A DNA stretch of 49,057 nt, taken from NCBI GenBank assembly GCA_021786265.1, contig JAJYNP010000091.1, positions 1 through 49,057 on the forward strand, read 5' to 3'. A program made the translations under genes and the position numbers. Every line of letters begins with the position of its first letter. Position 1 is the stretch's first letter. Below are positions 6,261 to 23,990 of this stretch, piece by piece. This DNA comes from Chloroflexota bacterium (GTDB taxonomy: Bacteria > Chloroflexota > Limnocylindria > Limnocylindrales > CSP1-4). The notes beneath the pieces were generated by a model, which worked only from the letters and a program-made list of their open reading frames with translations, searched no databases and was not told the origin of the DNA.

Positions 6261-6294
6261 GGGTAGTAGGTAGATCCTCTGGAAGTTGCCGCTC
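6261..6294 (+). repeat. Left terminal inverted repeat of the casposon-like element
   Basis: Begins GGGTAGTAGGTAG (13 bases identical to the right end read inward), then an 8-base variable part, then GAAGTTGCCGCTC (13 bases identical). In total 28 of 34 positions match the right repeat. The two-block layout suggests two recognition segments, one at the cut tip and one subterminal. Confidence 0.9.
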
Positions 6295-6416
6295 GCGAGC
6301 CGAGCCGGGCGCAGGCCCCCTGGTGTCGCGTGCCGGACGAGGCGCGGCAGGCTTCCGTCACAGGTAAAGTGGAGCACAACCACGGTCCACACCTAGGGAA
6401 GTGAGGTATCGCTGCG

Positions 6417-7547
6417 GTGTCGACGCAGCCGTTCATGCGGCCCTCCATCGCAGACGTCGTCACGTCTGCGCCGTGGGCTTCGCTTGAGGTTCACCTCGAT
6501 GGGCTGCGGGATCGAGTGGACGCGAGCCTGGAGCGTGCTCATGGCTTGCGCGAGGCCTACCGAGAGGAACTGCTGTCCCGCAGCCCCGAGCTAGCGGAGC
6601 AGGTCCATCGCCCCAGCCGCAGCGCTCTCGATGCGGCCGAGCGCCTGCTGGCAACAGGAACCGTGGCCGCGGCCGATGGCACCGTCGACGCCGTGCCACT
6701 GCTCACGGGGTCGAAGATCCAAGTCGGCGTGGTGCTCGTCTCCAACCGCGGCGAGGTCGTGGACCTCGTTACACGGATCTTCGAGTACGAGCTCGCGTCG
6801 GGGGCTAGTAGCGCGACTGACTTCTTCGCGCAACTCCGAACGGCGCGGTCGATCTCGAACCTGCTCAGTCGTGCAGTGATGCTCTTCGGAGAACGGCGGC
6901 TGCTTCGCGATCATCCTGCCGACTGGCGAATGATCCATGGCGAGTTGATGCCTCACGAGCTGAGGACGGGAGCCGGAAGGCCCGATGCTAACCTACCGCC
7001 GACATTCGATCTAGTGCGCTCCTACGTGGACTCCGAGACCTTCATCGCGGTTTCCGAGAGCCCCCAGGACCTCGACATCCTGAATGCCGCGGTCCTGCTG
7101 GAGCCTGGGGAATACATAGTCATCCGCTCTATGGTCGAGACGCTGTCAGTCTTCCTCGATGGAGACCCCACGATTGGCACGGTCCGCGCGAACTTCAACG
7201 CGAACGACGAGCGCCGCTTTCGTGAGTTCATCGCCTCAGCCGGACCCGAGGTAGCAGTCGTGTTGGCCAAAGCGGGCAATGCCCCGTTCCTTCTTGAATG
7301 CCACGCCAACCGAGTGGAGGAGGCAGTTGCCCTCTTCATGGCCGATGCGCTCTGGACTCGCGGCCTGCCCTCCGAAGGGTCGCCAATGGCAGCGAGAGCC
7401 TTTCCGTTCCATATCGACCTCGCCGACCAGGTCGCCAGGACCCTGTTCAAAGGCGCCGACTTCAGAGCGTTTGTCGAAGCACGTCTGGCAATGGTCGGGG
7501 CGGACACTGCTCTCTTTGATCTCGACCCAAGGAGGACGCGTTCATGA
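6417..7547 (+). CDS. NurA-like nuclease, partner of HerA
   Basis: A 376-residue protein read from a GTG start preceded by a GAGG ribosome site. It overlaps the HerA ATPase gene by ATGA, the usual NurA-HerA coupling. The segment AADGTVDAVPLL (85-96) matches the NurA acidic motif I at the first strand of the RNase H-like fold, and a conserved-looking PFHIDLADQVARTLF lies near the C-terminus. NurA-HerA machines resect or degrade DNA ends; bacterial versions also occur in phage defence. N-terminal 80 residues are helical. First gene inside the left end of the element. NurA assignment rests on motif plus HerA linkage and is probable, not certain. Confidence 0.7.
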   Translation: MSTQPFMRPSIADVVTSAPWASLEVHLDGLRDRVDASLERAHGLREAYREELLSRSPELAEQVHRPSRSALDAAERLLATGTVAAADGTVDAVPLLTGSKIQVGVVLVSNRGEVVDLVTRIFEYELASGASSATDFFAQLRTARSISNLLSRAVMLFGERRLLRDHPADWRMIHGELMPHELRTGAGRPDANLPPTFDLVRSYVDSETFIAVSESPQDLDILNAAVLLEPGEYIVIRSMVETLSVFLDGDPTIGTVRANFNANDERRFREFIASAGPEVAVVLAKAGNAPFLLECHANRVEEAVALFMADALWTRGLPSEGSPMAARAFPFHIDLADQVARTLFKGADFRAFVEARLAMVGADTALFDLDPRRTRS

Positions 7548-9340
7548 ACGACCCAAATGACGCGGTCTTGGACAACGGGGGGGGCGTCGTCGGGCCCGAG
7601 CAGCCGCCGACGGCGGAGACGCCGCAGGCAAACGCGGCAGATGCGCGATCCGACGGAATAGATGAAGGTCCGGCAGAGGCCGCAATAAGGGCCTCTCTAG
7701 TCTCGCTGGGCTTCGTGGGCTTCGATCAGAACGGTGGGTCAAACGACACGTCAGGGGTGATGGTCTCTCCTGACCGCCGACGTGCCTTCCGGCGCGATGC
7801 CTACGTTGGGATTCGGGACGAGGAACAGGAAACCGAGTTCCTGGGACGGGTAGTAGAGGGACCTTTCCACGCCCCCCACGAGATCAGTACCGAGAGTGCC
7901 ATCTCTCGCACTACCCTGCTCTTCCCGGAGCGCACTCAATTCAGGCCCACCTACTACGTTTACGGGTCCGTCGAGGTCTTGGGCGAGATTCGCGGAGGCG
8001 AGCGGCTTGTACCGACGCCTACGCGCCCCCGCCCGTACTCGGAGGTATCTATCTATCCAGCGGCCCGTCTCCGGACAATGCTCGGACTCGAGGGTGACTT
8101 CCAGATCGGCCACCTCATGGGCTACGAGGCGGTCGACGTCGCTGCGGATCCGGGGAGCAAGAACTTTCTCCCCCGCAACATCGGGGTATTTGGCACCGTC
8201 GGCTCGGGCAAGTCAAACACGACTCAGGTAGTCATGGAGGAGGCCCTCGCAGCGGGCTGGGCGGTCGTTGTTATCGATGTTGAGGGTGAGTATGTCCGCA
8301 TGGAGGAGGCGGCGGCCGACCCTCGCATGATCGCCATCCTCTCGGACAGCTACGGCCTCGCCCCTGACGGGGTTGACGACTTCCGTGTCTACGTCCCGAG
8401 CAGCGGCGCCTCTGACGCTGCAGCCCCGATCAGCTTCAAAGTTCCGATCGCCGGTGTCTCTCCTGAGGTGGTGAGTGACATTCTTGAACTCACGGAACCC
8501 CAGGTGCGGATGTTTACGCAGATCTGCGCGCAGGCCGTCCGGAACGCAGCGGCGCCAGGTGGGGCCGCCGGTCGGACCGGGGTCCTAGCAGGTGGCGTGA
8601 CGACGCCCGGAACCAGACACGCGTACACGCTCCAGACGCTCATCGATGGCCTCCAGGATCCGAACGTTCCCCTCCTGGGACGACCGCCAACTGCCACCGA
8701 ACTTCCCACCGCGGCGACCCTTCGTAGCAAGCTAATCACCCTCGGAATGTCGCGCGTCCTCGATTGGAATGCAACCGCGCGGACTCCTGAGCTACCCGTC
8801 AACGATCTCCTGCTCGGCGGGCGTCTCTCGGTGCTCGACGTGTCCGAGACCGACGATCGAAGCCGAAGCATTGCCATCTCGTACTTGCTACAGGCACTGT
8901 TCGACGCTGTGATCGCCACAGACGAGGGCGCCCCTATGCCGAACGGCGTGTCGCGCCCACGCGTCCTTGTCGTCATCGAAGAGGTCCACACCTTCGTGTC
9001 CCGGGCGTCGGCTCAACGGATGAGGGCGGTCATCGATCAGCTCCAGATCATCAGCCGCCGCGGACGAAAGCGGTGGATGGGCCTCGTGCTGGTGTCCCAG
9101 CAACCCGGTCATGTCCCAGATGAACTCTTCGAATTGGCAAATACGCGGTTCATCCACCAGCTCAAATCCATCGCGAATCTCGCCCCCGTCCGTCAAACGA
9201 CCGGGGGCGTGCACGAAGCCCTGTGGACCACCGTGCCCTCGCTCGGTCCCGGCCAGTGCCTTCTCACCGGGGCGACGTTCCTCAATCCGGTGTTCGTCAA
9301 CGTCCGACCGGCCAAGTCCCGGCGCCTGTTGACATCGTAG
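7544..9340 (+). CDS. herA: HerA-type hexameric DNA translocase ATPase
   Basis: A 598-residue ATPase of the HerA/FtsK superfamily. An N-terminal HAS-barrel region (about 60-160, with FLGRVVEGPF) precedes Walker A GTVGSGKS at 217-224, VVVIDVEGEY near 241-250, and a Walker B-like LVVIEEVHTF around 476-485. The C-terminus LGPGQCLLTGATFLNPVFV is typical of HerA. It would form a ring that pumps DNA to the NurA-like nuclease encoded just before it (ATGA overlap). A DNA methyltransferase follows after 8 bases, so the three probably act together. The first 45 residues are Asp/Gly/Ala-rich and disordered. Third positions carry more A/T than in the polymerase and cas1 genes, hinting at separate origin. 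Confidence 0.88.
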   Translation: MNDPNDAVLDNGGGVVGPEQPPTAETPQANAADARSDGIDEGPAEAAIRASLVSLGFVGFDQNGGSNDTSGVMVSPDRRRAFRRDAYVGIRDEEQETEFLGRVVEGPFHAPHEISTESAISRTTLLFPERTQFRPTYYVYGSVEVLGEIRGGERLVPTPTRPRPYSEVSIYPAARLRTMLGLEGDFQIGHLMGYEAVDVAADPGSKNFLPRNIGVFGTVGSGKSNTTQVVMEEALAAGWAVVVIDVEGEYVRMEEAAADPRMIAILSDSYGLAPDGVDDFRVYVPSSGASDAAAPISFKVPIAGVSPEVVSDILELTEPQVRMFTQICAQAVRNAAAPGGAAGRTGVLAGGVTTPGTRHAYTLQTLIDGLQDPNVPLLGRPPTATELPTAATLRSKLITLGMSRVLDWNATARTPELPVNDLLLGGRLSVLDVSETDDRSRSIAISYLLQALFDAVIATDEGAPMPNGVSRPRVLVVIEEVHTFVSRASAQRMRAVIDQLQIISRRGRKRWMGLVLVSQQPGHVPDELFELANTRFIHQLKSIANLAPVRQTTGGVHEALWTTVPSLGPGQCLLTGATFLNPVFVNVRPAKSRRLLTS

Positions 9341-9348
9341 CGGTCGTT

Positions 9349-10557
9349 ATGGACGCCACCCCTCCCAGCCCTGCTGCTCCCACGACTTGGCCCGACTATG
9401 AGCCAAGACTCGGGTGGTTCCATCGCTATCCGGCTAGGTTTGCTGCGCCCGTCGTGGGCCAGCTTCTGAGCGACCTTGTCGAGAGACTTGGCGGTCGTCC
9501 AGCGCGCCTCCTCGATCCCTACGCGGGCACGGGCGCCACTATGGCCGCCGCTCGTCAAGCTGGGATTCCGTCGGAGGGCGTCGAACTCGGACGGCTGGGT
9601 GTCCTGATCAGCACAGTGCGGCTCGCTCCACCGAGGGATCTCGAGGCTGCACTCGATCAAGCAGAGGGCCTGGCGAGGCTGCAGCCCGCTGTCGACGGAC
9701 GGCATCCCCATAGGGCCGAGCTCGAACGTTGGATGGGTCCCCGCAACGTCGATCAGCTAGTAGCCGTGCTCACGACGATCGAATCGATCCCCGACAGCGC
9801 GACACGGGCCTTCTGCGAACTGACGTTGTCGGCGGCGCTGCGGCCAGCGTCCGTGTGGCTTGCCGGATCTATCAAGCCTCAGGTCGATCCGTCGAGATCG
9901 CCAAGGCCGTTGGCCAACGAATTGGCGCGCTGCGCACGAACAATCGCGCGCGACGTGCGATGTGAGACTCTAGGGGCCTCGGTTCCTGCTAGGGTCGTGC
10001 AGGGTAATGCGGCGAGACTACCGTTCGAAGATGGTGCGTTCGACGCCGTGATTACCAGTCCGCCCTACTTCACGACGTATGACTACATTGACGTCCAGAG
10101 GCTGTCCTATCTGGCCTTCCGTTGGCCCAACCCTAGGGACGACCAGCTGGGGCGATACTCGCGAATCCCATCGGACGGCGTCTGCTTCATACCGCCCAAC
10201 ACACTTGCGGACTGGTATGAACTCTACGGTCGCGAGAAGACGGCGAAGGGTCGCGCGATTCGCGACTACGCGCAGAGGCTCGCACTGCACCTCTCAGAAG
10301 TGCATCGTGTTACGCGCCCCGGCGCGGCCATAGGCGTCGCAATGGCCAACTCCGTTCGCGCTGGCAGGACCTTCGACCTTGTTGCGACCCTTGGCGAGCT
10401 AATGAGCGCCGCTGGCTTCACATCGATTGAAATTCGCAACCGTTCCGCGCGCGGCCGCCGCATCCTACCGCTCGGCCGAAACGTCACTACAGGTCGCTTC
10501 GCGGACGTTCCGACCGGGGGGACCGTCGAGCGCCTGGTGTACGCGACGCGCCTCTAA
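9349..10557 (+). CDS. SAM-dependent DNA methyltransferase with TSPPY motif
   Basis: A 402-residue methyltransferase. The SAM-binding motif LLDPYAGTG lies at about 54-62 and the catalytic TSPPY at 236-240, followed by FTTYDYIDVQRL. This order (SAM motif first, SPPY later) and the Ser-Pro-Pro-Tyr form suggest N4-cytosine or N6-adenine modification; which one cannot be read. The ATG at 9349 lies 8 bases after the HerA stop; upstream in-frame codons would overlap herA extensively. In a NurA-HerA operon it most likely marks self DNA so that the nuclease-translocase attacks unmodified DNA; that role is inferred. Confidence 0.87.
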   Translation: MDATPPSPAAPTTWPDYEPRLGWFHRYPARFAAPVVGQLLSDLVERLGGRPARLLDPYAGTGATMAAARQAGIPSEGVELGRLGVLISTVRLAPPRDLEAALDQAEGLARLQPAVDGRHPHRAELERWMGPRNVDQLVAVLTTIESIPDSATRAFCELTLSAALRPASVWLAGSIKPQVDPSRSPRPLANELARCARTIARDVRCETLGASVPARVVQGNAARLPFEDGAFDAVITSPPYFTTYDYIDVQRLSYLAFRWPNPRDDQLGRYSRIPSDGVCFIPPNTLADWYELYGREKTAKGRAIRDYAQRLALHLSEVHRVTRPGAAIGVAMANSVRAGRTFDLVATLGELMSAAGFTSIEIRNRSARGRRILPLGRNVTTGRFADVPTGGTVERLVYATRL

Positions 10558-10825: not shown

Positions 10826-11566
10826 TCATCTCTCCAGGCAACATACCTCGAAGTCGAACTGCCTCTCTTTCGCTCGCTTCCAGAGGGCCGCACTCTCCCC
10901 GCTGTAGCCCGGGTTAATCACTCGCCCGATGGGCACCACGGCGACGACCCTTGCGCCGGCTAGCTGCAGCGCCGAGGCGGCACTCTGTACCCGAGCCCCC
11001 GACGTATACGTGTCGTCCAACAGCAGGACGCGCAGGTCTCGGACACTCCCCGTCACCGAATAGGCCTTGTCCGAGGCCCGATTGTGGCTCGCCCTCTCCG
11101 GACCTGGCGTCAAAAGGGGTCGATAGTGTTTGCCGAGGTATCGAAACATGCGAAGTGCCTGCTCTAACGGATGGACGCCAGTCCGTCCTTGGCTGGATGG
11201 CACGATGGTGATGCAGTCCCATTCCTCGCCCGCTTCGGCGCGGATGCACGGCCCGTGCTGGGCAATGAAGCGAGCAGCGAGGGCACTGACTTCTATTCGA
11301 AGGCGCTGCCGCACTGTCTCAGGGTAGAAGGGACTCTTGTAGTTGCGCAGCACATGGTGGAGCTGCCCATCGAGGACGGTCAGCGAGATCGGAACCACCA
11401 ACTCAGCCGGGCAGGAGACCTGTTCAACCGACTCCTTGCAGCTCCAGCACCGCGTCCAGCCAGTCCCCGGGGCACCGTGACACACATCGCACACACCAGG
11501 GCCGATGGGGAGAACGCGCGTGTATGTCGTCAGCAGCGGGTCAGTGATCTCGACGGCGGTCGGCAC
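10826..11566 (-). CDS. ComF-like phosphoribosyltransferase with N-terminal zinc finger
   Basis: A 246-residue protein. Cys26/Cys29 and Cys40/Cys43 form a zinc ribbon, and VLLLDDTYTSGA (180-191) is the PRPP-binding loop of type I phosphoribosyltransferases. ComF proteins with this layout serve DNA uptake and recombination. Here the gene lies 8 bases downstream of dprA on the same strand, so the two are one operon. Outside competence loci this pairing hints at a defence or mobile-element role; the substrate is unknown. There is no helicase (ComFA) nearby. Family call firm, function open. Confidence 0.8.
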   Translation of the reverse strand: MPTAVEITDPLLTTYTRVLPIGPGVCDVCHGAPGTGWTRCWSCKESVEQVSCPAELVVPISLTVLDGQLHHVLRNYKSPFYPETVRQRLRIEVSALAARFIAQHGPCIRAEAGEEWDCITIVPSSQGRTGVHPLEQALRMFRYLGKHYRPLLTPGPERASHNRASDKAYSVTGSVRDLRVLLLDDTYTSGARVQSAASALQLAGARVVAVVPIGRVINPGYSGESAALWKRAKERQFDFEVCCLER

Positions 11567-11574: not shown

Positions 11575-12501
11575 TCAGCCGAGCGTGAGCTGCACCGCCG
11601 GCCGCGCCATGGCCACGAGCACGTGGAGGATGTCCTCCACCGAGTCGATCACCATCGTTCCCTTGCGCTCCGCGTACCGCTTCGCCCAGTCCTCATGCAT
11701 GACAAGCGACCTGACCAGAAACAGGCGCTTGCCGTGCTCAAGAGCGAGACGAGCCTGCATGCGCGCTCCGCTCGTCGCGTTGGCCTCAATGACCACCGTG
11801 CCAATGGCCATGCCGCTCATTACGACGTTGCGCAGGGGGAAGGACACCTTCGTCGGAGGTGCCTCGGGCCAGAACTGCGAGACGAGGGCTCCAGAGTGCA
11901 GGACCTGCTGGGCCAGTTCCGCGTGCTCGGCTGGATACATCCTGTCGATCCCGGTCCCCATGACCGCCACGGTCCGGCCGCCCGCAGCGAGTGCGGCACG
12001 ATGCGCAGCTCCGTCGATCCCGCGCGCCAGCCCTGACAGGACCGTGACTCCGTTGCGCGCAAGCTCCGTGGATAGCCGGATGGCCTGGTCCAGTCCGGCA
12101 CCCGATGGATTTCGCGTTCCGACGACCGCGACTGCGCGGTTGTCCTCTGCGCGCAGGTTCCCCCTCACAAAGAGGAACGGCGGGCGATTGTAGACGTGAC
12201 GGAGGTTGGTGGGATACGTGGCGTCGAGGACCGTAACGACGTGGACCCCGCGCGCCTCGTACCGCTCCACGAGTTCTTCGTAGTGGCTGAGGTCGTCCAT
12301 GCTGACCCGACCGGCTAGGGCGTCGGCCGAGGGCACGTCGAACGGCTCGAACTCCGTCCAGGCACGATGCAGAACCCGAAGCGCACTACCGGCGTCTTCG
12401 ATGAGCGCGGCAGTGCGGTACCACTCGCCCTGCGTTGCTGCCACAAGGGCGAGCACGGCGGCCCGTTCGGAGACCGACGCCTCCAGCACGTTTCCGAACA
12501 C
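11575..12501 (-). CDS. dprA: DprA/Smf-family DNA-processing protein
   Basis: A 308-residue DprA-like protein read from a GTG start. The Rossmann-like core has AVVGTRNPSGAGL, the diagnostic VLSGLARGIDGAAHRAAL, and TVAVMGTGIDRMYPAEH. Canonical DprA loads RecA on incoming single strands; many accessory DprA-like proteins instead bind nucleic acids or nucleotides in defence contexts. The C-terminus lacks the winged helix seen in many chromosomal DprA proteins. It is followed at once by the phosphoribosyltransferase gene, and both lie inside the mobile element, so this is probably not the housekeeping copy. Confidence 0.85.
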   Translation of the reverse strand: MFGNVLEASVSERAAVLALVAATQGEWYRTAALIEDAGSALRVLHRAWTEFEPFDVPSADALAGRVSMDDLSHYEELVERYEARGVHVVTVLDATYPTNLRHVYNRPPFLFVRGNLRAEDNRAVAVVGTRNPSGAGLDQAIRLSTELARNGVTVLSGLARGIDGAAHRAALAAGGRTVAVMGTGIDRMYPAEHAELAQQVLHSGALVSQFWPEAPPTKVSFPLRNVVMSGMAIGTVVIEANATSGARMQARLALEHGKRLFLVRSLVMHEDWAKRYAERKGTMVIDSVEDILHVLVAMARPAVQLTLG

Positions 12502-12550: not shown

Positions 12551-15547
12551 CTATGGAAGGAGACGCTTGAGACGGGCGCGTGGGCCTCGGTGGGGCATCT
12601 TCCCTCCGTTCAGCGCATACCGCAGCGCCCGCTCGGACAGGCCCGACGCCTCGGCCAGGTACCGCCACCCGCGCTCGTCGCGCAGCCGCCGCAGCGCCGG
12701 CAGCAGCGCCTGCCACTCGGCGCGCTCGTCGCGGTACTCGACGTAGACCTCGTCGGGGTCGCTGACCAGGCCATTCTGGGCCTCGTCGAGCCGGTTACTC
12801 TCCTTGCCGATGTGCCGGGGCACCCCGGCCGCCTCGACCCGCAGCCGAGGCAGCAGCCCGGCCGTCCCTCGCCGCCCAAGGCCGCCGCGCGGGTCGCCGC
12901 TCTTTGTCTCGGGGTGCAGGCGATAGTCGGCCACGATGTCGCCGTAGGTCTTGAGCCGCACCTTGCCGGGCTCCCCGCCCGGGCGCGTCGTGACCTCGAT
13001 CAGCCGCCCGTCGGCGCGGTTCCGCCACGCCAGCCCGAGCAGCCGCTCCGGCTCACTGGTGAACGGCGCCACCGGGGTGACCGGGCCGCAAAGCCCGTCG
13101 GGAAGCGGCACGAGCGGGTCCGCGTGGCCGATCAGCATGAACCCGAAGGGCTTGACCTGTGCCTCGTAGGGCTTCCCCGCGTTGAGCGCAGCGAAGGGCG
13201 CCAGCACGGTCGGGCTGGAGATGGGCAGCTGGCTCACCGCGGGCAGGTCGAACCACGCCGGCGCGGGATCGAGGGGCAGCCCCTCGGCCTCGGCGATGAT
13301 GCGCCGCCACACGATGTCGGCCCACTCGGGCCACTCCTTGTCCCACGCCGGGTCGGCCGGGATCGGCGAGCGGAAGAGGCCGAGGCCGTGGGTGGAGGCC
13401 TTGCGCACCTCGACCTCGCCGTCGGCGCCCCGGTTGTACAGGACGTAGCGCTTGGAGCTGATGTCGACCGCCCACAGCTCCTCCGGCCGCGTCGGGTCGT
13501 CGGGCGCGAAGTTCTCGGGCTCCAGCTTGATCAGGGACGGCACCGCCTCCCGGTCGTACGGGTTGAGGGCGTTGAGCCCGCCAAGGATCTCGGTGACCTC
13601 GGCCCAGGCGAGGGCCCGCACGGCGGCTCGTCCGTCCGGCAGGCGCTCCGATCCGCCCGGGCACGCCAGCAGGCCGCCACGCTCCGAGGCCACGATGACC
13701 AGCGAGTCGGTGTCGCACGCGACGTAGCTCCCGCCCCGAGCCTCGACGTCGGCCTGGAGCAGCCCGAGCAGCAGGCGCGCCGCCCCGGTGATCGTCGCCG
13801 CCAGCGGCGGGAAGCAGAAGGCACCGGGCTCTTCGGGCGTCGACACCCGTGCCTCGATGGGCCACAGGCCCGACGCGGAGACCCGCTTGCCGCCGGCCAC
13901 CGGGTCGAGCTGGCGGAACTCCGCAAAGATCCCGTAGGCGCCGCCGTTGGCGAGCGTCTTCAGGAACTGGGCGAGCCGCGTGCGCTCCTGGTCGGACAGG
14001 GTGCGATCGCGCTTCACCCGGGCCCGCTCCTCGGTGGCGAAGCGGAAGAGATCGTCGGCGGACGGGTCCACCGCGATCGTCCCCCGCAGCTTCACGGGCG
14101 TGAGTCCCCCCGCCTGTCCCTCGGGCACGACCCGGAAGGCCTCCAGGATGATCGGGCCGGTCGAACCCAGCAGCCGCGCGGCGACGAGGTCGGCGAGCGT
14201 GTACCAGAGATCGACCGGGCAGGCCAGCTCGTTGAGGCCGATGGTCCACGCGGCCGCGGCCCCCGCGGGCGCCGTGACGTCGGAAGCGTCGGCGCCGTAG
14301 CGGGCACGCACGGGCAGCAGGTCGCCGTCGGGCCGGACGCGACAGAACACCCCGGCCAGGCGCCGCCAGAGGGCCGGCTCGTGCAGCCGCTCGCGGGTGC
14401 ACTCGGCCAGCAGCCCGCGGGCCTCGTCGGTGGCGTCGACCAGCGCGAACCGCTCCGCGGTCACCCAGTCCCACAGCGCCAAGAGCGAAAACACCGTCGG
14501 GTACATCGAGGTGAAGTCGACGTAGCGCACGGGCAGCGGGACGCGCCGGACGCGGCACTCGGTCCGGCCGCCGAAGTAGGCCGTGGTCGCCTGCCCCAGG
14601 CGCGCGTCGGAGACGGCGGCCGCCCGCTCGCGCGGCGGCTGCACGCCGATCGCGCGCAGGTAGCCCTTGCTCACCGCGGCCGGGGAGTAGGCCTGCTCGG
14701 GCGCGAGGCCGATGGGGTGGCGCTCCCACTCCGCGAGCAGCGTCTGATACAGCAGCCAGGTCAAGCGCACGTCCTGGCGGTTGTAGTCGATGTACGCGGG
14801 GGTCAGGACGCCGTGCGCCTCCACCTGCGCCTTGCCCTCGGGGAGGCCGAACGCGCGGGCGGCCGCGGTAAGCGAGAGTGAAGCGTCCGTGAAGGCGTAC
14901 GTAAGGGTGTGGAGATCGAGGAAGGTGCCCGGGTAGAGGCGCCCCTCGCTGGTGCGGTGCTCGGGGGCGAGGGTCGCCGGGTACGCGAAGCCGATGAACT
15001 GGCGCTTGGCATCGAGGGCCTTGATCTGGATCTCGGGCCGGTAGCGGTCGGGCCAGCGGTGTCCGTCCGCGTCGACCGACTCCCAGACGTGGAGGCGGAA
15101 CCCCCCGTTGCGCGCCCGATGCCACCCGAAGGCGAGGCGCGAGAGGTCGAAGGGCAGGTTGAAGCCGACGACCCGGGCCCGAGCTTGATAGCCGATGGGC
15201 CAGAGGACCGCACGCACGAACGCAGAACGGCTGAACAGCCGCAGCCGCCCGCCGTGCTCCGCGGCGTGGTTGGCCACGTATGCCTCCAGGATGGCGCGCT
15301 CCTCCGCGGACAGATCGTCGGCCGCGATGAGGCCCTCCTGGCGCAGCTTGCCCGCCGCGGGGTAGACCCGGTAGCTGCCGAAGAGGAGGGCCTGCGCGTG
15401 GTCGGTGCGGGTCTCCGTGTCGAGCACCAGCACGAGGTCGGGCTCCGCGTAGACGCGCGGGGCATGGGTCGGCCGAGTGCGCGGGACGTAGGCTCGGACG
15501 GCGATCTCCGTGCGCAGCGCGGCGAGGCCGTCGCGTCGGCGGCTCAT
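12551..15547 (-). CDS. Family B DNA polymerase of the casposon-like element
   Basis: A 998-residue polymerase with complete active-site motifs. Proofreading exonuclease: Exo I Asp43-x-Glu45 in VLDTETR, Exo II Asn130...Asp134 in GFNLPFDLS, Exo III Tyr255...Asp259 in YNRQD. Polymerase: motif A Asp344 in DFTSMYP, motif B Lys530...Asn534...Tyr538-Gly in KTLANGGAYG, motif C DTDS at 612-615. The C-terminal ~60 residues resemble a helix-turn-helix (YLAEASGLSERALRYAL). It starts with ATGA overlapping the HNH gene. In casposons such polymerases are thought to copy the element. About 180 residues between motifs A and B leave room for a priming insertion, but protein priming cannot be decided by eye. 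Confidence 0.93.
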   Translation of the reverse strand: MSRRRDGLAALRTEIAVRAYVPRTRPTHAPRVYAEPDLVLVLDTETRTDHAQALLFGSYRVYPAAGKLRQEGLIAADDLSAEERAILEAYVANHAAEHGGRLRLFSRSAFVRAVLWPIGYQARARVVGFNLPFDLSRLAFGWHRARNGGFRLHVWESVDADGHRWPDRYRPEIQIKALDAKRQFIGFAYPATLAPEHRTSEGRLYPGTFLDLHTLTYAFTDASLSLTAAARAFGLPEGKAQVEAHGVLTPAYIDYNRQDVRLTWLLYQTLLAEWERHPIGLAPEQAYSPAAVSKGYLRAIGVQPPRERAAAVSDARLGQATTAYFGGRTECRVRRVPLPVRYVDFTSMYPTVFSLLALWDWVTAERFALVDATDEARGLLAECTRERLHEPALWRRLAGVFCRVRPDGDLLPVRARYGADASDVTAPAGAAAAWTIGLNELACPVDLWYTLADLVAARLLGSTGPIILEAFRVVPEGQAGGLTPVKLRGTIAVDPSADDLFRFATEERARVKRDRTLSDQERTRLAQFLKTLANGGAYGIFAEFRQLDPVAGGKRVSASGLWPIEARVSTPEEPGAFCFPPLAATITGAARLLLGLLQADVEARGGSYVACDTDSLVIVASERGGLLACPGGSERLPDGRAAVRALAWAEVTEILGGLNALNPYDREAVPSLIKLEPENFAPDDPTRPEELWAVDISSKRYVLYNRGADGEVEVRKASTHGLGLFRSPIPADPAWDKEWPEWADIVWRRIIAEAEGLPLDPAPAWFDLPAVSQLPISSPTVLAPFAALNAGKPYEAQVKPFGFMLIGHADPLVPLPDGLCGPVTPVAPFTSEPERLLGLAWRNRADGRLIEVTTRPGGEPGKVRLKTYGDIVADYRLHPETKSGDPRGGLGRRGTAGLLPRLRVEAAGVPRHIGKESNRLDEAQNGLVSDPDEVYVEYRDERAEWQALLPALRRLRDERGWRYLAEASGLSERALRYALNGGKMPHRGPRARLKRLLP

Positions 15548-17630: not shown

Positions 17631-19241
17631 ATGCAGCCTCAGGCTAGCGATTCCCTGGCCGCCTGGCCAGCGGAGATCGTGGCTCCCCACGGCATCCTCG
17701 TCCTCTCCGGCTACGGGCTCGACGTGCGCGTCTGGCGCGGCCGCCTGCGCGTCGCCGACGGCATCGGCCGCGACCGCCGCGAGGCTCTGGTCCACCGCGC
17801 GACCGGTCGCCTGCGTCGGCTCGTCGTGCTCGGGCACACCGGCGCGATCAGCCTGGAGGCCGTCCGCTGGCTGGTCGACGTCGGCGCGGCCTACCTGCAG
17901 ATCGACGCCGACGGGCGCGTGCTCGCGGCCTTCGGCCCGCGCGGCACCGACCGGCCGAGCCTCCGACGCGCGCAGGCGCTCGCGCTCGACGCGCCGGTCG
18001 GGGTCGACATCGCCCGGCGACTCATCGCCGCCAAGGTCGCCGCGCAGGCGTCGGCGCTCGCGGCCGGCCGCGAGTTGCTTGCCGTCACCGACGAGACGGT
18101 GGCGACCATGCGCGACGCCGCGGCCCGGCTGCACGTCGCGGCGAGCCGCGACGACGTCCGCCTCGCCGAAGCGCAGGCCGCCGCGGCGTACTGGTCCGCG
18201 TGGGCGACTGTGCCGGTGCGCTTCGCCCGGCGCGACGCCGACCGGGTGCCGGCCCACTGGCGCACGGTCGGGAGCCGCTCCTCCCCGCTCACCGGCGGAC
18301 CACGGCTGGCGGCCAACCCCGCCAACGCGCTCCTGAACTACCTCTACGCGCTGCTGGAGGGCGAAGCTTCCGTCGCCGCCCGCATCGTCGGACTCGATCC
18401 CGGGATGGGGGTTCTGCACGCGGACCAGCCCAACCGGGACTCGCTCGCGTGCGACCTGATGGAGCCGATCCGGCCCGTCATCGAGAGTGACGTGCTGCGC
18501 CTGCTCGCGGCACGGCCCTTCGCCGCGGCCGACTTCTACGAGACACGGGAGGGCGCGTGCCGCATCACCCCGCCGCTTGCCCGCCAGCTCGCGGAGGAGT
18601 CCGGCGACCTCGTGCGGGGCGCGGGCCAGGTGGCCGAGGACGTGGCCCGGCTGCTGGAGGCGCGGCCGGCCTGGCAGCGCCCGCTCCCGACGCACCTGAG
18701 TGGCCGGAACCGCAGCGCCGGTCGGGCAACGAGCGCGCCAACCGCGCCTCGCGCCGTTGCCGCAGTCCCTCCAGCGCGCGCGTGCCTGTGGTGCGGCGCG
18801 CCGCTGCGCGGCCAACGGAAGACGTGCCGTGGGGCATGCGAGCGCGCCGTCCAGGCGGAGAACACGGCCCGGTTCGCCGAGGTGGGCGCCCGGGTGCTCC
18901 AGGAGCACCGGCGGTCCGGTGCTTCGGACCAGTGGACCGAGGCGAGCCGGGAGCGGCTCGGCGAGGTGGAGACCGCGCGGATCCGGGAGGCCCGCGCGTG
19001 GCAGCGGGAGGGGCGCTGGCCGACCGACATGGGCGCCTTCAAGCGGGAGATCCTGCCGACACTGGCGGACGTCTCCGCGGGGGCGCTGGCGCGCTCGACG
19101 GGGCTCTCGGTGGGCTACTGCCGGCGGATCAAGAAGGGGTTGGTGGTGCCGCACCCGATGTGGTGGGAGCGGCTGGTGGCGCGCAACGAAACAAGTCGCG
19201 GGGACACCGACGGTGCCCCCGCGACAATTCACGATCGCTGA
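17631..19241 (+). CDS. cas1: Cas1-family integrase (casposase-like) with C-terminal zinc finger and HTH
   Basis: A 536-residue solo Cas1. The catalytic domain holds Glu180 in LAEAQAAAAYW, then NALLNYLYALLEGEA (232-246), GLDPGMGVLHAD with His263, and SLACDLMEPIRP with Asp275/Glu278: all metal ligands are present. The C-terminus adds a Cys4 finger (Cys385, Cys388, Cys399, Cys403) and a helix-turn-helix around 475-505 (ILPTLADVSAGALARSTG, then YCRRIKKG). Archaeal casposases also carry a C-terminal HTH. No cas2, effector or array is near. A GGAGG site precedes the ATG by 10 bases. It is the only integrase-like gene inside the terminal repeats, so it most likely moves the element. CRISPR adaptation is unlikely; a related solo Cas1 type is found in actinobacteria as I recall. 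Confidence 0.95.
   Translation: MQPQASDSLAAWPAEIVAPHGILVLSGYGLDVRVWRGRLRVADGIGRDRREALVHRATGRLRRLVVLGHTGAISLEAVRWLVDVGAAYLQIDADGRVLAAFGPRGTDRPSLRRAQALALDAPVGVDIARRLIAAKVAAQASALAAGRELLAVTDETVATMRDAAARLHVAASRDDVRLAEAQAAAAYWSAWATVPVRFARRDADRVPAHWRTVGSRSSPLTGGPRLAANPANALLNYLYALLEGEASVAARIVGLDPGMGVLHADQPNRDSLACDLMEPIRPVIESDVLRLLAARPFAAADFYETREGACRITPPLARQLAEESGDLVRGAGQVAEDVARLLEARPAWQRPLPTHLSGRNRSAGRATSAPTAPRAVAAVPPARACLWCGAPLRGQRKTCRGACERAVQAENTARFAEVGARVLQEHRRSGASDQWTEASRERLGEVETARIREARAWQREGRWPTDMGAFKREILPTLADVSAGALARSTGLSVGYCRRIKKGLVVPHPMWWERLVARNETSRGDTDGAPATIHDR
19195..19225 (+). terminator. GC-rich hairpin overlapping the end of cas1
   Basis: GTCGCGGGG and CCCCGCGAC are perfect 9-base arms around a 13-base centre that is itself mostly palindromic (CACCG/CGGTG). 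It lies in the last codons of cas1, with AATTC following. It could terminate cas1 or the converging secreted-protein transcript; there is no T-tract. Confidence 0.35.
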
Positions 19242-19250
19242 CTGGTCCTG

Positions 19251-20201
19251 CTACGGACCGACGTAGGTGATCCAGAAGTTGAGCGAGCCCACGTTGTCGC
19301 CGTACCAGCCGAGGTCCTTGGTGTTGGTGTTCGAGTTCCCGTCGAACACGCCCAGGTTGACCGTTCCAGAGAGCGGCATCGCCAGGGTGTAGGCGTGCGT
19401 ATCGGTGTACGCGCCCCAGTTCACGAAGGCGTCGTTCACCTGCACGTCACCGAAGCCCTCGCCGAGCGTGTAGCCGGCGAAGTCGAACCCGTTGTACCAG
19501 GTGCCCTGGTACTGCACGTACTCGGCGTCGACGTCGCCCCAGTTGTCGTTGTGCCAGGTGCCCCACACGTCGATCCGGTAGGTCCCAGCCTGCGGCAGCG
19601 CCACGTCGGTGCCGGTCGACGAGGCCGAGTTGATGGTGCCACTCGTACTCCACTCGAAGGCCCCGGTCGTGATCGGCATCCCGATGCACGAGTGGGCCGC
19701 GTCGTCACCGCCGCCCTGCGCCTTCACGTACTGGCCGTGATTCTTGTAGTCGGTGGTCGGCGTGATCAGGGGCCTGCTCACCTTCATCAGGATGGGCCAG
19801 TCGACGGGCGGGTCTGTCACCGCGATGTTCACGAAGGGATCGTAGAGCGCGTTGGTCAGCGTCCACGTCCTGCCGTCGTATGTGCGGGTCGCGGTGTAGC
19901 TGATGGAGTTGGTACCGAGCGTGCCGGTGATCGTCTCGCCGGTGCCCTCGGTTCCTCCACCAGTCTTCGTCTGCGCCGGAGCCGTGCCCGTGAAGGTGTT
20001 GTCGCACGGATTGAGAGTGACCGTGTAGCTGTGCGTCCAAACGGTGGTCCACTGGTTCTGCGTGTCCGCAGGTTCGGTCACCTGGAACGTCGCTGACTCC
20101 AGCTGGTACCGCGCTACGTCGGCCGACGCGGTGCCGGCGGTGACGACGATCATGGTCGGCGCCAGCAGCATCGCGGCGGCAAATAGGGACGTAAGTCGCA
20201 T
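19251..20201 (-). CDS. Secreted beta-rich protein of unknown function carried by the element
   Basis: A 316-residue protein with a clear signal peptide (MRLTSLFAAAMLLAPTMIVV, cleavage near ASA-DV). The mature part is rich in Thr, Gly, Trp and Tyr and looks like a beta-sandwich, with only a few cysteines; I recognise no family. An alternative GTG start two codons upstream (20207) fits better to the GGAGGG site 9 bases before it. It is convergent with cas1 (9 bases apart). A secreted protein inside a casposon-like element is odd: it may be cargo, such as a surface or exclusion protein. Confidence 0.7.
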   Translation of the reverse strand: MRLTSLFAAAMLLAPTMIVVTAGTASADVARYQLESATFQVTEPADTQNQWTTVWTHSYTVTLNPCDNTFTGTAPAQTKTGGGTEGTGETITGTLGTNSISYTATRTYDGRTWTLTNALYDPFVNIAVTDPPVDWPILMKVSRPLITPTTDYKNHGQYVKAQGGGDDAAHSCIGMPITTGAFEWSTSGTINSASSTGTDVALPQAGTYRIDVWGTWHNDNWGDVDAEYVQYQGTWYNGFDFAGYTLGEGFGDVQVNDAFVNWGAYTDTHAYTLAMPLSGTVNLGVFDGNSNTNTKDLGWYGDNVGSLNFWITYVGP

Positions 20202-20760
20202 ACGCACGATGATGTTCCCTCCCTGCAGCGAGCTGAGAAGCCCCAAAGGGGCGCCCTCGGCTCTGGGGACGCAAAGTCCAGGTGGCAAGCCTGCGATGGG
20301 CAAACTGTCGTGGCCCGCCGACACCCCCACACGCCCGACGGCGTGATGCAGTGACAGGGGGCTCGGTCTCGCCAGTGGCTCGATGCGGTCCAGGCGGCCG
20401 GGCAGGGACCGCAGGTCAACGCCTCCCCCGCGGAAGACTCGACCATACCGTGCGCCTATCCTCACGGGTAGGTCCGGATGGCCCCCTGACGGTGCGTGGA
20501 GACAGCGGTTGTTGTCGATCGCACTATGCGTGAGCGCTGGGCACATGACCGCCGACCTCGGGTTAGAGCCCGCGGACACCACTCTCGGAAGCCACAGCCG
20601 CTTGCACGAGTCGCCGTCGTTGTGTCGCTGGGGCTTCACGGTGGAGACCGCCCACAAGCGCCGGGTAAGCGGGCGGTAAGCGGCCCCCGGTAGCATGCTG
20701 GGCCCCCCCGCTCCGCGTGCTGCGGACGATCCCGGTGCACGTCGCCGGCCAGTTCCAGCG
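20202..20760. other. Long non-coding stretch upstream of the secreted protein gene
   Basis: About 560 bases without a convincing gene. It holds the GGAGGG ribosome site of the secreted protein and a small hairpin GCCCCAAAGGGGC (20240-20252) in its leader. Plus-strand words GACGCAAAG and GGGCAAAC resemble cyclic-di-GMP riboswitch elements, but in the wrong order and with no plus-strand gene downstream. Promoters cannot be fixed by eye. Confidence 0.5.
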
Positions 20761-21075
20761 TCAGCGTCGGGGGTTCGCTCCGGCAGGCGATGACCCGAGC
20801 GGCGGGGCCGAGGGCCGCGCCGTGCGCGAGCGGCGCCGCCGCGCCTGCGCGCTCTTCAGGGCCAGCCGCGCGAAGTAGGCCTTGCGCGCCATCTCGGCGC
20901 GCCGTGCACGCTCCGCGGGATCGAGCACGCTCTCGGGGTCCACCTCTCGCTCGAACCGCGCCTCGAACGCCGCCCGAGCGGCTCGCGTGATCTCATGCGG
21001 GTCGTGACGGGCCAGCATCGTGTACGCGCCGATCCGCCCCAGCAGCGAGCGCACCGGATCCACCTGCCTGCTCAT
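20761..21075 (-). CDS. Small basic helical protein coupled to the uracil-DNA glycosylase
   Basis: A 104-residue protein starting MSRQVDPVRSLLGRIGAYTM, overlapping the uracil-DNA glycosylase gene by ATGA, hence translated with it. Residues 28-85 are charged helix (RAARAAFEARFEREVDP, then AERARRAEMARKAYFARLALKSAQARRRR); the tail is Arg/Ser/Pro-rich. No family recognised. Probably a DNA- or protein-binding accessory of the glycosylase. Confidence 0.65.
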   Translation of the reverse strand: MSRQVDPVRSLLGRIGAYTMLARHDPHEITRAARAAFEARFEREVDPESVLDPAERARRAEMARKAYFARLALKSAQARRRRSRTARPSAPPLGSSPAGANPRR

Positions 21076-21674
21076 GCCGGACTCCTCCGCTCGATCCCCG
21101 CCAGCCGAGCCGCGAGCGCGAGGTCTTGGGCCACCTGGGGTCGGCGTCCAATCCCCCAGCGCCACGCCGACGGGTGCCAGGTCGGCACCACCAGCACACC
21201 GCTCGCGGCGTGGACACGGCCCCGCACGGCGTCGAGCGACGCAACAGGTCCCAGCAGCCGCCGCGTCGGCGTGAGCCCGAACGCCACGATGACCGAGGGG
21301 CGCAGCACCGCGAGCTGCAGATCGAGGTAGGGGGCGCAGGCCTCGATCTCCGCCGCCAGGGGCTCCCGGTTGACCTTGGGCGGCTGCGCCGGCGGGCGGC
21401 ACAGCACGACGTTGGCGACGTAGACGGCAGCCCGGTCGATCCCGACCGAGGCGAGCACGCGATCGAGAGCCCGACCCGCGGTGCCCACGAAGGGACGGCC
21501 GGCGGCGTCCTCCTCACCGCCTGGGGCTTCGCCCAGGAGGACGAGTCGCGCGGTCGAGGGGCCGACCCCGAAGACGACCTGAGTGCGGGACACCGCGAGC
21601 GGGCAGCGCACGCACTCGCGCGCGATCCCACGAACGAAATCGAGCCCACGCCTGCCCGCGTCACTTGTGTCCAC
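21072..21674 (-). CDS. Uracil-DNA glycosylase, family 4 (Fe-S type)
   Basis: A 200-residue glycosylase that removes uracil from DNA. The motif GEAPGGEEDAAGRPFVGTAGR is split here only by notation: GEAPGGEED, then GRPFVG.AGR, both typical of family 4; HPSA near the C-terminus completes the active site. Cysteines in ECVRCPLA, VVLCRPP and EACAPYL are placed to bind the 4Fe-4S cluster. Inside the element it may keep DNA copied by the family B polymerase free of uracil, a pairing known in archaeal and viral replication. It is upstream of, and overlaps, the small basic gene. Confidence 0.92.
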   Translation of the reverse strand: MDTSDAGRRGLDFVRGIARECVRCPLAVSRTQVVFGVGPSTARLVLLGEAPGGEEDAAGRPFVGTAGRALDRVLASVGIDRAAVYVANVVLCRPPAQPPKVNREPLAAEIEACAPYLDLQLAVLRPSVIVAFGLTPTRRLLGPVASLDAVRGRVHAASGVLVVPTWHPSAWRWGIGRRPQVAQDLALAARLAGIERRSPA

Positions 21675-21722
21675 GCGCCTCTCCGTTGCGCGTGAACACT
21701 AATCGCTAGCGATCACTCCTGC

Positions 21723-21929
21723 CTAGCCACCTCGGCGGCGCTTGTACGGATCCTTCTTCCGCAAGCGCTCGTCCGCGAGATAGGCGAGGACGGCGGCTTC
21801 TGTGGTGAACCAGTCGCGCCCGAGCTTGCGCGCCGCGAGCTTGCCGGTCCTTGCGAGGAGCCGGAGGTTCGAGGCGCTCATACCCGAGCGGGCCGCCGCC
21901 TCGCGCAACGACAACAAGTCGTCCGCCAA
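21723..21929 (-). CDS. Small excisionase-like helix-turn-helix protein
   Basis: A 68-residue protein read from a TTG start: LLSLREAAARSGMSASNLRLLARTGKL then AARKLGRDWFTTEAAVLAYL, the standard short MerR/excisionase (HTH_17) fold, with a basic tail. Such proteins act as recombination directionality factors or small regulators. It is 48 bases upstream of the glycosylase gene on the same strand and divergent from the OLD nuclease gene. The TTG start is the only one that keeps the domain whole. Confidence 0.7.
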   Translation of the reverse strand: MADDLLSLREAAARSGMSASNLRLLARTGKLAARKLGRDWFTTEAAVLAYLADERLRKKDPYKRRRGG

Positions 21930-22087
21930 GGCGGCCTCGGAGCGGGGCTATGGCTGAGGGCGAGTGTAGGGCAAGCCGCCCCGCCAAGCGACCGGTGGGG
22001 GTCGGACGCCGTGTCCGCTCCGGGGGCGAGCACGGGACTCGCGCCGCTCTGATCAGTGGAGCGCAATACTTGTCCAGGCAGTCGCGC

Positions 22088-23899
22088 ATGGGAGAGCCAG
22101 TGGACCAACCAAGAGTGACGATCACCTCGGTCCGCTTCCGCGACTACAAGGCGCTCCACGACTTCAGTCTTGCGTTGCGTCGCACCACGATCCTTGTTGG
22201 ACCGAACAACTCCGGCAAGTCGACCGTGATCGGCGCGTTTCGCGTTCTGGCCGCCGGCCTGCAGACCGCCCGGTCTCGCAACCCCGTACGTCTGGAATCC
22301 CCAGACGGCCTCCGGTACGGCTATAAGGTGCCGGAAGAAGGGATCGCCATCTCGCTGGAAAACGTCCACACGGACTACGCGGACATCGACTCCACTGTCA
22401 CGTTCCGTCTCTCAAACGGCAATTCCCTGCAGCTCTACTTCCCGGCTGACGGGGGGTGCTACCTATTCCCGCATACCGACCTGCGCACACCTCACAACAC
22501 CTCTGAGTTCCGGCGTGCGTACCCGATTCAGCTGACGGTGGTGCCAGTCCTGGGACCGCTTGAACACGAGGAAGAGCTTGTCGAGGAAGCAACAGTCAGA
22601 AGGAACCTTGGCACTCATCGAGCCTCGCGCAACTTCCGAAACTACTGGCTGTACGAGCGGGACGATTTCCCCGCCTTCCAGCAACTGGTCGCTCAGACGT
22701 GGCCGGACACCACGATCGGCCCACCGGAAATCACCACCGACACGGCCGCGCCGCGGGTGATCATGTGGTGCCGCGAGGGGCGGATCCCACGTGAACTCTA
22801 CTGGGCAGGTTTTGGCTTCCAGGTTTGGTGCCAGCTTCTTACGCACCTGGTCCGCGCACAGCAATCCAGTCTGGTCGTCATCGACGAACCGGAGATCTAC
22901 CTGCACCCCGACCTTCAGCGACAGCTCGTCGGCCTCCTGCACAACATGGGCCCCGATGTGCTGGCCGCTACACATTCCTCAGAGATCCTCGCCGAGGCGG
23001 AGCCGCCGGATCTTGTGGTCGTGGACAAACGCACCCGGTCAGGTCGGCGGCTGCGAGGTCCTGTCGACGTCACGTCTGCCCTTCGTTCCATTGGATCCAA
23101 TCAGAACGTGGTCCTGACTCAGCTTGCGCGCACGCGACGTGTGCTCTTCGTCGAGGGCCGAGACTTCTACTTGCTCTCGCGCTTCGCACGTCTGCTTGGG
23201 CTCGACAAACTCGCCAACGGCTCGGACTTCGCGCTCGTTCCCCTGGGCGGATTCCCCGAACAAGCTGCCGTGGCGGCGCTCTGCCGGGGAATGCGGCAGG
23301 CACTGAGCCTTCCGGTGGCATTCGCGGGACTGTTCGACAGAGACTACCGACCGGACGATGAAGTGCAGGAAGTCACTCGGCGGCTTCGCCGGCTTCTTCG
23401 AGTCGTGATCATCTTGCGCAGGAAGGAGCTTGAGAACTACCTGCTCGTCCCCTCGGTCCTGGAGCGCGCAATCGCCGGCGCAATCCGAGACAGGGACCGC
23501 GACGCGACGCCCGCGGCCCAGGGGCCTGCCCCTGTTGAGTCGCTGCTGTTGGATGTGACGGACACCTTTCGGTATCAGGTCCACAGTCAACTTGTCGCGA
23601 GGCGGACGGAGTTCCTGCGTCGCTCAGGGACTGATTCGGCCACTGTCACCGAGACTGTAACCAGGGCTTTCGACGCGTCGTGGAGCGATCTAGCGGAAAG
23701 GATCTCCCTGGTACCCGGCAAGGCAGCACTCGCTGCGTTCAACACACGCCTGCAGCGCGACTACGCCGTCTCACTCAGCGTCGCAGCCATTCTTCGCGAG
23801 TTCAAAGCGAGCGACATCCCCTACGATCTCGCGCAGACCCTTCAGCAGCTCGACACGTTCCGCGAGTGCGAGGTGCCCATGTCTGAGGCCTCGGGGTGA
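22088..23899 (+). CDS. OLD-family ATPase-TOPRIM nuclease
   Basis: A 603-residue protein. An SMC/ABC-type ATPase begins with VRFRDYKALHDFSLAL and Walker A GPNNSGKST at 38-46; the Walker B region reads LVVIDEPEIYLHP followed by LAATHSSEIL. The C-terminal TOPRIM domain shows RRVLFVEGRDFYLLSR, GLFDRDYRPDDE and RKELENYL, the metal-binding pattern of OLD nucleases. Class 1 OLD nucleases act alone in phage defence (P2 Old). No UvrD-like GajB gene follows, so it is class 1 rather than Gabija. It is the last gene before the right terminal repeat, thus cargo. The ATG at 22088 gives a family-like start; its ribosome site is weak. Confidence 0.88.
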   Translation: MGEPVDQPRVTITSVRFRDYKALHDFSLALRRTTILVGPNNSGKSTVIGAFRVLAAGLQTARSRNPVRLESPDGLRYGYKVPEEGIAISLENVHTDYADIDSTVTFRLSNGNSLQLYFPADGGCYLFPHTDLRTPHNTSEFRRAYPIQLTVVPVLGPLEHEEELVEEATVRRNLGTHRASRNFRNYWLYERDDFPAFQQLVAQTWPDTTIGPPEITTDTAAPRVIMWCREGRIPRELYWAGFGFQVWCQLLTHLVRAQQSSLVVIDEPEIYLHPDLQRQLVGLLHNMGPDVLAATHSSEILAEAEPPDLVVVDKRTRSGRRLRGPVDVTSALRSIGSNQNVVLTQLARTRRVLFVEGRDFYLLSRFARLLGLDKLANGSDFALVPLGGFPEQAAVAALCRGMRQALSLPVAFAGLFDRDYRPDDEVQEVTRRLRRLLRVVIILRRKELENYLLVPSVLERAIAGAIRDRDRDATPAAQGPAPVESLLLDVTDTFRYQVHSQLVARRTEFLRRSGTDSATVTETVTRAFDASWSDLAERISLVPGKAALAAFNTRLQRDYAVSLSVAAILREFKASDIPYDLAQTLQQLDTFRECEVPMSEASG

Positions 23900-23956
23900 C
23901 TGCAGCCAGCGTCTGGGCAGGAGCCGTCACGGAGAGCGCGGCACGGTCCGGGAGAG

Positions 23957-23990
23957 GAGCGGCAACTTCGAGCCAGCCTACCTACTACCC
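23957..23990 (-). repeat. Right terminal inverted repeat of the casposon-like element
   Basis: On the plus strand it reads GAGCGGCAACTTC, 8 variable bases, then CTACCTACTACCC, the inverse of the left end. Together with the left copy it matches at 28 of 34 positions. A stop codon (TAG, minus strand, 23985-23987) within it ends the neighbouring methyltransferase frame. Confidence 0.9.

What the first reader, a model, noticed from the sequence alone, without database searches (positions are those of the whole stretch)
6261..23990. Intact casposon-like element (Cas1 + PolB + HNH + HTH) with terminal repeats and target duplication in a bacterium
The sequence directly shows 34-bp terminal inverted repeats (28/34 matching, two 13-base perfect blocks), a perfect 16-bp flanking duplication, and inside them a solo Cas1 with all catalytic residues, a family B polymerase with all six motifs, an HNH-type protein and HTH proteins. 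That gene set defines casposons, best known from archaea with few bacterial cases. No other recombinase is present. A 17.7-kb casposon-like element with large defence cargo in a high-GC bacterium appears novel to me.
Basis: partly seen in the sequence, partly recalled or inferred. Interest (0 to 1): 0.97.

Follow-up and report, generated by a model that had tools for sequence, protein, structure and literature searches.

The report
Casposon that inserts at gene promoters
This stretch is a 17.7-kb jumping element of the casposon kind (relatives of the DNA-capture step of CRISPR immunity), and it belongs to a bacterial group whose members insert at the upstream edge of ordinary host promoters and can pile up there in rows.

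Summary
Confirmed and extended. The element (window 6260-23991) has 34-35-bp inverted repeats, an exact 14-bp target duplication and a PolB / HNH-like / HTH / Cas1-zinc finger-HTH core shared with relatives. Its Cas1 groups with casposases, apart from other Cas1.

What looks new is the target. A motif-blind search of 53 Cas1 regions found 21 complete elements (control 0 of 53). In 19 of 21 the duplication is edged by TTGAC (17), TTGAG or TTGTC: the -35 box of a sigma70-type promoter. In a motif-chosen set of 20 promoter-side junctions facing 11 genes, 20 of 20 have a -10-like hexamer 17-18 bp on, against 53 of 289 intergenic TTGAC. Targets include valS, rplU, tRNA-Gln and, in the window, an rrf2-type gene. 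Relatives hold these promoters free of an element. Two elements use another register. Seven casposons from the Nitrosomonas family have similar ends and 14-bp duplications but no such target (0 of 7), so the habit belongs to this clade. Elements also stack, usually with the intact copy nearest the promoter. How the promoter is recognised is inferred.

The parts
6222..6250 (-). Target promoter: -35 TTGACG (6250-6245), 17-bp spacer, -10 TAGACT (6227-6222), pointing away from the element to the rrf2-type gene
5569..6039 (-). Rrf2-type regulator downstream of the target promoter (Pfam PF02082 1.5e-37; start codon by eye)
6246..6259 (+). Target duplication, promoter-side copy GTCAACGGAGGTGG
6260..6294 (+). 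Left terminal inverted repeat
6417..7547 (+). Cargo protein without family match, in one unit with HerA
7544..9340 (+). HerA/DUF87-type ATPase (5.5e-18)
9223..10557 (+). DNA methyltransferase (N6_N4_Mtase 2e-6; PADLOC type II MTase 1.2e-14); true start probably later
10826..11566 (-). Phosphoribosyltransferase, weak ShosT match (2.7e-5)
11575..12501 (-). DprA-type protein, ShosA match (7e-67)
12551..15550 (-). Family B DNA polymerase
15547..15996 (-). HNH-like small protein (conserved columns, no Pfam hit)
16012..16482 (-). HTHa, conserved small HTH protein of the core
16580..17494 (+). HTHb, HTH-like by eye, no family match; a gene of similar kind sits here in some relatives
17631..19241 (+). 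Cas1 (casposase) with C-terminal zinc finger (C385-C403) and HTH
19251..20201 (-). Secreted protein, relative next to cas1 in L002 (61%)
20352..20435 (-). c-di-GMP-II-GAG riboswitch upstream of the secreted protein
21072..21674 (-). Family 4 uracil-DNA glycosylase (1.6e-45)
21851..23899 (+). AAA ATPase of the OLD/AriA/GajA kind; true start probably later
23957..23991 (-). Right terminal inverted repeat
23992..24005 (+). Target duplication, distal copy, followed by GGGGTAG (24006-24012)

Best explanation
It is a casposon: a transposon whose Cas1 joins its GGGGTA-type ends to a staggered 14-bp target, leaving exact 14-bp repeats, with its own PolB to copy or fill DNA. Its clade (genomes titled Chloroflexi, Actinomycetes and Acidobacteria) targets sigma70-type promoters: the duplicated 14 bp ends at the fifth base of the -35 hexamer (TTGAC), on the side away from the -10. 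The promoter therefore keeps both boxes and the element sits just upstream of a working gene. As only the promoter-side repeat copy adjoins the -10, a further insertion is expected there, pushing older elements outward. Shown here by sequence: ends, exact repeats, promoter register, repeated use of the same promoters, promoters free of an element in relatives, stacked junctions, Cas1 grouping. Inferred: that this Cas1 catalyses the joining, that promoter features are what is read, and that new elements enter at the promoter side.
For: 21 complete elements in 53 regions, control 0 of 53, found without any target motif; 19 of 21 edged by TTGAC/TTGAG/TTGTC. -10-like hexamer at 17-18 bp in 20 of 20 promoter-side junctions (motif-chosen; 11 target genes) against 148 of 2256 of all TTGAC and 53 of 289 intergenic ones. 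valS, tRNA-Gln, rplU and rrf2-type promoters each used in more than one genome. Free promoters in relatives. Cas1: invariant catalytic residues, 6opm casposase as best fold match, casposase group 99/95 and window clade of 30 rows 100/99. Seven elements of the Nitrosomonas family with like ends but no such target.
Against: Two of 21 elements (G015C4, G015C13) sit 9-10 bp from a -10-like hexamer, in another register. All evidence is from sequence: no integration or transcription was measured, and -10 boxes are motif calls. Many sites are orthologous promoters, so independent target genes are 11, two of them unnamed. The window's own strict empty site (with the distal neighbour) was not found. 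The predicted HTHa has no significant fold match, so no sigma-like reader was identified.
Confidence: 0.82

Rival explanations
1. The casposase reads only a short GTCAA-type motif at the repeat edge and inserts at many such places; insertions just upstream of promoters are the ones that survive, because they leave genes working.
For: TTGAC is the strictest part of the sites; M. mazei casposase relies on a 4-bp CGCA at the repeat edge (PMC6977970, passages).
Against: 53 of 289 intergenic TTGAC have a fitting -10, yet 20 of 20 sites do; known casposases also need a second motif outside the repeat; elements of the Nitrosomonas family survive at sites that are not promoters.
Confidence: 0.25
2. 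RNA polymerase holoenzyme bound at the promoter guides the casposase, rather than the casposase reading DNA alone.
For: Flexible 17/18-bp spacing and varied TAnnnT boxes look like sigma reading; no sigma-like domain was found in the core proteins examined.
Against: No direct evidence; A. boonei and M. mazei casposases find their two-part sites alone in vitro.
Confidence: 0.2
3. A genomic island moved by some other recombinase, whose 22-bp repeats are attachment sites.
For: A shared 20-22-bp core at both ends can look like att sites; a circular intermediate is proposed for M. mazei (PMC10359463, passages).
Against: No recombinase domain in the ORFs scanned; Cas1 is the one gene shared by 23 of the 24 listed elements, down to 5.1 kb (G001C86e2 and G103C27e2 lack it or hold none); exact 14-bp repeats and terminal repeats are what casposases make.
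Confidence: 0.04
4. The Cas1 belongs to a CRISPR-Cas adaptation module.
For: It matches PF01867 and CRISPR Cas1 models.
Against: It groups with casposases, apart from 60 and 17 other Cas1 rows (those rows were labelled CRISPR by me without checking arrays); PolB, HTHa and HNH models find nothing in the 66 other loci given.
Confidence: 0.01

Closest known systems
Bacterial (family 3) casposons, e.g. NitAL212-C1, AceAut-C1, StrAlb-C1, HenMar-C1 (PMC4046053)
   Same: Solo Cas1, PolB, HNH and HTH genes, terminal repeats with duplications; zinc finger and HTH fused to Cas1 as in AceAut-C1. Elements of the Nitrosomonas family found here share GGGGTA-type ends, 14-bp duplications, PolB (down to 3e-256), HTHa and HNH-like genes.
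   Different: The window clade is a separate branch of Cas1 (100/99) and targets promoters; 0 of 7 Nitrosomonas-family elements do. The published family 3 sequences themselves were not in hand.
Methanosarcina mazei and Aciduliprofundum boonei casposons (families 2)
   Same: 14-15-bp duplications; two-part target with a short conserved motif at the repeat edge and another outside it; C-terminal HTH on Cas1; tandem elements (passages).
   Different: Their sites are at tRNA 3' ends; here they are core promoters upstream of the gene.
CRISPR leader-repeat adaptation by Cas1-Cas2
   Same: Cas1-made repeats, insertion beside one outer sequence, ordered stack.
   Different: Inserts are 5-20-kb elements, no Cas2 seen, and the promoter fires away from the stack, not into it.
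Tn7-type site-specific transposons
   Same: Insertion beside a needed gene without breaking it; stacks at one site (comparison made in PMC4046053).
   Different: Unrelated integrase; Tn7 reads the end of glmS, not a promoter.

Membership tests
Casposon | Stand-alone Cas1 with the catalytic residues | tested here: met
   E180, H263, D275, E278 invariant in 25 rows; matched to the E. coli residues by position from recall
Casposon | Cas1 groups with casposases, not CRISPR Cas1 | tested here: met
   With 6opm at 99/95, other Cas1 on the far side of a 99/95 branch; weaker join in the first tree, 97/43
Casposon | Family B DNA polymerase in the element | tested here: met
   Motifs; PF03175 in 12 of 16 relatives
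[quoted passage not shown]
Casposon | Integration catalysed by its Cas1 | not testable with these tools
   Needs purified protein
Casposon family 3 | Bacterial host; HNH and HTH genes as in families 2 and 3 | tested here: met
   Relatives titled Chloroflexi, Actinomycetes, Acidobacteria; HTHa and HNH-like genes, HNH by conserved columns only
Casposon family 3 | Cas1 inside the published family 3 clade | tested here: inconclusive
   Sister to the Nitrosomonas-family group within a bacterial group, 100/97; published reference proteins were not available
CRISPR-Cas adaptation module | Cas1 within a CRISPR Cas1 branch | tested here: not met
CRISPR-Cas adaptation module | cas2 and a CRISPR array next to cas1 | tested here: not met
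   No Cas2 match among the ORFs scanned; no CRISPR-like family among the 20 direct-repeat families shown of at least 60 in 6150-24100

The most novel reading that the evidence does not exclude
In this bacterial clade the two-part casposase target has become the bacterial core promoter itself: the machinery (Cas1 with its zinc finger and HTH, a partner HTH protein, or RNA polymerase as guide) reads -35 and -10, inserts at the upstream edge, leaves the promoter working, and adds new elements next to it. Host promoters then act as leaders of ordered casposon stacks, a living counterpart of the leader-repeat step from which CRISPR arrays are thought to descend.
Probability: 0.5. Interest if true: 0.88.

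Novelty: new variant of a known kind. Interest (0 to 1): 0.78.

Why it matters
The casposon targets named in the papers I could see are tRNA 3' ends, the end of an EF-2 gene, or intergenic places left unexplained (PMC4046053 section 7). A clade that targets core promoters would give a Cas1-based integrase with a portable and predictable site, explain how large elements sit beside needed genes without harm, and offer a system outside CRISPR in which insertion next to an outer sequence, and stacking, can be studied. It makes the question of what a leader originally was directly testable.

Tried and rejected
Sigma-like reader: HTHa was modelled (pLDDT 85) but has no PDB match at E <= 0.001; the Cas1 HTH looks like a Cro/XRE-type fold by its helices only.

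Other carriers: no plasmid match for Cas1 or PolB; one remote viral contig, 25% over part of Cas1.

DinB as target gene: corrected, the promoter faces a tRNA-Gln gene and the DinB-like gene lies on the far side.

Strict empty site for the window: 81 relatives searched, 40 with any match; in G550 and G646 the rrf2-type promoter is free of an element but the other neighbour differs. G721 has the tRNA-Gln promoter without a terminal motif, but its neighbour gene lies about 0.5 kb further off than in G113, so I do not count it as an empty site.

Polarity: nearest long Cas1 is promoter-ward in 17 of 18 junctions listed. Two of these are in G018C67 and two in G001C86, and five (G011C132, L003, L014, L015, G007C230) hold under 4 kb of distal sequence, so this supports but does not show promoter-side addition. 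In G012C23 the distal element also has a full-length PolB and a Cas1 cut by the contig end.

Papers: eight searches listed no paper that I could recognise as joining casposon targets with promoters. I saw passages of PMC4046053, PMC6614799, PMC10359463, PMC6977970, PMC9939771, PMC9966878, PMC7786333 and PMC7465815 and no paper in full; the other listed papers only as listings. Krupovic 2016 (evw006) is not held.
Full report
The element. Window 6260-23991 is bounded by inverted repeats (28 of 34 positions) and by an exact 22-bp direct repeat, of which 14 bp (GTCAACGGAGGTGG) is the target duplication by comparison with relatives. In order it holds: a protein without family match, a HerA-type ATPase and a DNA methyltransferase; a phosphoribosyltransferase and a DprA-type protein (weak ShosT and strong ShosA matches); PolB, an HNH-like protein and HTHa on the minus strand; an HTH-like protein and Cas1 on the plus strand; a secreted protein behind a c-di-GMP riboswitch; a family 4 UDG; an OLD-like ATPase.

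Kind. A profile search of PDB sequences gives an Archaeoglobus Cas1 (4n06, 8.7e-31) and the M. mazei casposase 6opm (1.2e-30) as best; the predicted fold has 6opm first. In a tree of 63 rows the casposases with 6opm form one group (99/95), a bacterial group within it has 100/97, and the window with 29 relatives forms its own clade (100/99); the 17 other Cas1 rows lie on the far side of a 99/95 branch. A first tree with 60 other rows agrees, with a weak join to 6opm (97/43) and long branches flagged. Two rows of one Chloroflexota genome (G473) that I had grouped with the window fall with the Nitrosomonas family instead.

Relatives. The contig scan gave 94 Cas1 relatives, 80 kept; 26 of the first 36 loci also show PolB by tblastn with the window protein, L011 and L012 being alike, 16 HTHa and 9 the HNH-like protein. 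In drawn samples of two phyla, matches at E <= 1e-20 occurred in 20 of 396 and 14 of 301 genomes, some already known to me and many of the weaker ones other Cas1.

Ends found without a target motif. Around Cas1 in 53 regions (a few held twice) I sought inverted repeats with an adjacent direct repeat of 12 or more: 21 gave a complete element, one further weak hit in G182C1 was dropped; with one flank reversed 0 of 53 did. Seventeen duplications have TTGAC (GTCAA) at an edge, one TTGAG (G013C1), one TTGTC (G008C139); G015C4 and G015C13 have neither, and lie 9-10 bp from a TATACT or TACACT. G113C1 and G182C1 are the same site in very similar genomes; G018C67 lies inside a stack. The 24 elements listed run from 5.1 to 19.6 kb.

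The edge is a promoter. For 20 promoter-side junctions, chosen by terminal motif and TTGAC (five, G014C348, G004C24, G006C162, G007C230, L020, without a partner repeat found), a -10-like hexamer (A at 2, T at 6, at least 3 of 6 matches) lies at 17 or 18 bp in 20 of 20. Controls: 148 of 2256 TTGAC in the same regions, 53 of 289 intergenic ones by a rough ORF mask; both controls include the sites themselves. The 20 face 11 genes, two of them unnamed; 0.18 to the power 11 is about 8e-9 (my arithmetic, treating the genes as independent). By eye G013C1, G103C10 and G008C139 fit too. Names: Rrf2 is a Pfam match in the window; tRNA-Gln is called by ARAGORN in L025 and seen in joined flanks; valS, rplU, the GAF, radical-SAM-like and TAT-signal proteins are my reading of translations.

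Same promoters, different elements. Elements sit at valS promoters in four genomes, at tRNA-Gln in five (two of them near-identical), rplU in two and the rrf2-type gene in two. At valS the terminal repeats differ clearly; at the others some are alike. In 28 valS promoters recovered from 30 loci, 16 by eye have a casposon-like end 9-10 bp before the -35.

Promoters without an element. For tRNA-Gln the joined flanks of G113 match G068 over 1-409 without interruption at 68%, and in G236 and G725 the two flanks lie at the spacing expected without an element. Of the valS promoters, L257-L259 among others have no terminal motif. The window's rrf2-type promoter is free of an element in G550 and G646, with another distal neighbour.

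Stacking. Repeats with a terminal motif on both sides: 19 pattern hits, 16 distinct junctions at 15 loci including the window, L014 being weak; 0 to 2 per run in 20 block-shuffles. G001C86 and G103C27 hold two consecutive elements with three repeat copies, G018C67 also three copies. In the window the distal side shows only GGGGTAG, so a lost neighbour is possible, not shown. The nearest long Cas1 is promoter-ward in 17 of 18 listed junctions (limits under Tried and rejected). Tandem casposons separated only by duplications are known from Methanosarcina (PMC9939771, passages), so stacking itself is not new. The promoter fires away from the stack, unlike a CRISPR leader.

Control clade. In 125 genomes of the family of the genome holding L055 (titled Nitrosomonas sp.), 13 have a Cas1 at E <= 1e-30. 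Of 13 regions from 10 of these, seven gave complete elements with GGGGTA-type ends and 14-bp duplications (one weak second hit in G939 dropped; control 0 of 13). PolB and HTHa models hit 11 of 13 regions, the HNH model 7 of 13. By eye 0 of 7 are edged by TTGAC with a -10 at 17-18 bp; G938b and G940 have TTGAC inside the duplication in another register.

Mechanism and known parallels. A. boonei needs TCAAATC 9-15 bp outside the site and CC at the border (PMC6614799, passages); M. mazei needs CGCA at the repeat edge and bases 12-17 outside, and its C-terminal HTH part (PMC6977970, passages). A two-part target is therefore known; here the two parts coincide with -35 and -10. The word promoter does not occur in the main text of PMC6614799, PMC10359463, PMC6977970, PMC4046053 and PMC9939771; in PMC7786333 it concerns cloning, and the passages seen of PMC7465815 concern the casposon's own genes. 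That promoter targeting is unreported rests on those and the eight searches named; subscription papers were not searched.

Noticed in passing
window 19251-20435 (-); L002 11613-12807 (-): A secreted protein beside cas1 lies behind a c-di-GMP-II-GAG riboswitch in the window and, with 61% identity, in L002: cargo of a casposon under c-di-GMP control.
   Followed up: partly
L294-L301, L181, L193 (G014:C348): The 32-bp valS-type promoter occurs at further loci of the same genomes in front of other sequence, again often beside casposon-like ends. I do not know whether this is a regulon or a promoter moved along with elements.
   Followed up: partly
L169/L170 (G015:C4) and L165/L166 (G015:C13): Two elements with alike ends (GGATAGCTATAG) insert 9-10 bp from a -10-like hexamer, a different register from the rest.
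   Followed up: no
window 10826-12501 (-): A ShosT/ShosA-like phosphoribosyltransferase and DprA pair carried as cargo.
   Followed up: no
window 6417-7547 (+): A 376-aa protein with no family match sits in one unit with a HerA-type ATPase and a DNA methyltransferase: possible unnamed defence unit.
   Followed up: no
L329-L347: Genomes of the Nitrosomonas family hold many casposons, two each in G859, G938 and at least two in G928, with two kinds of ends and Cas1 with an N-terminal zinc finger in some.
   Followed up: partly
window 12700 (PolB C-terminus), 19000-19200 (Cas1 C-terminus): PolB relatives carry weak C-terminal HTH matches (HTH_31 2.4e-6 in one, HTH_3 in two of 16), as Cas1 does: the family 2 casposon trait of a shared HTH on both proteins.
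   Followed up: no
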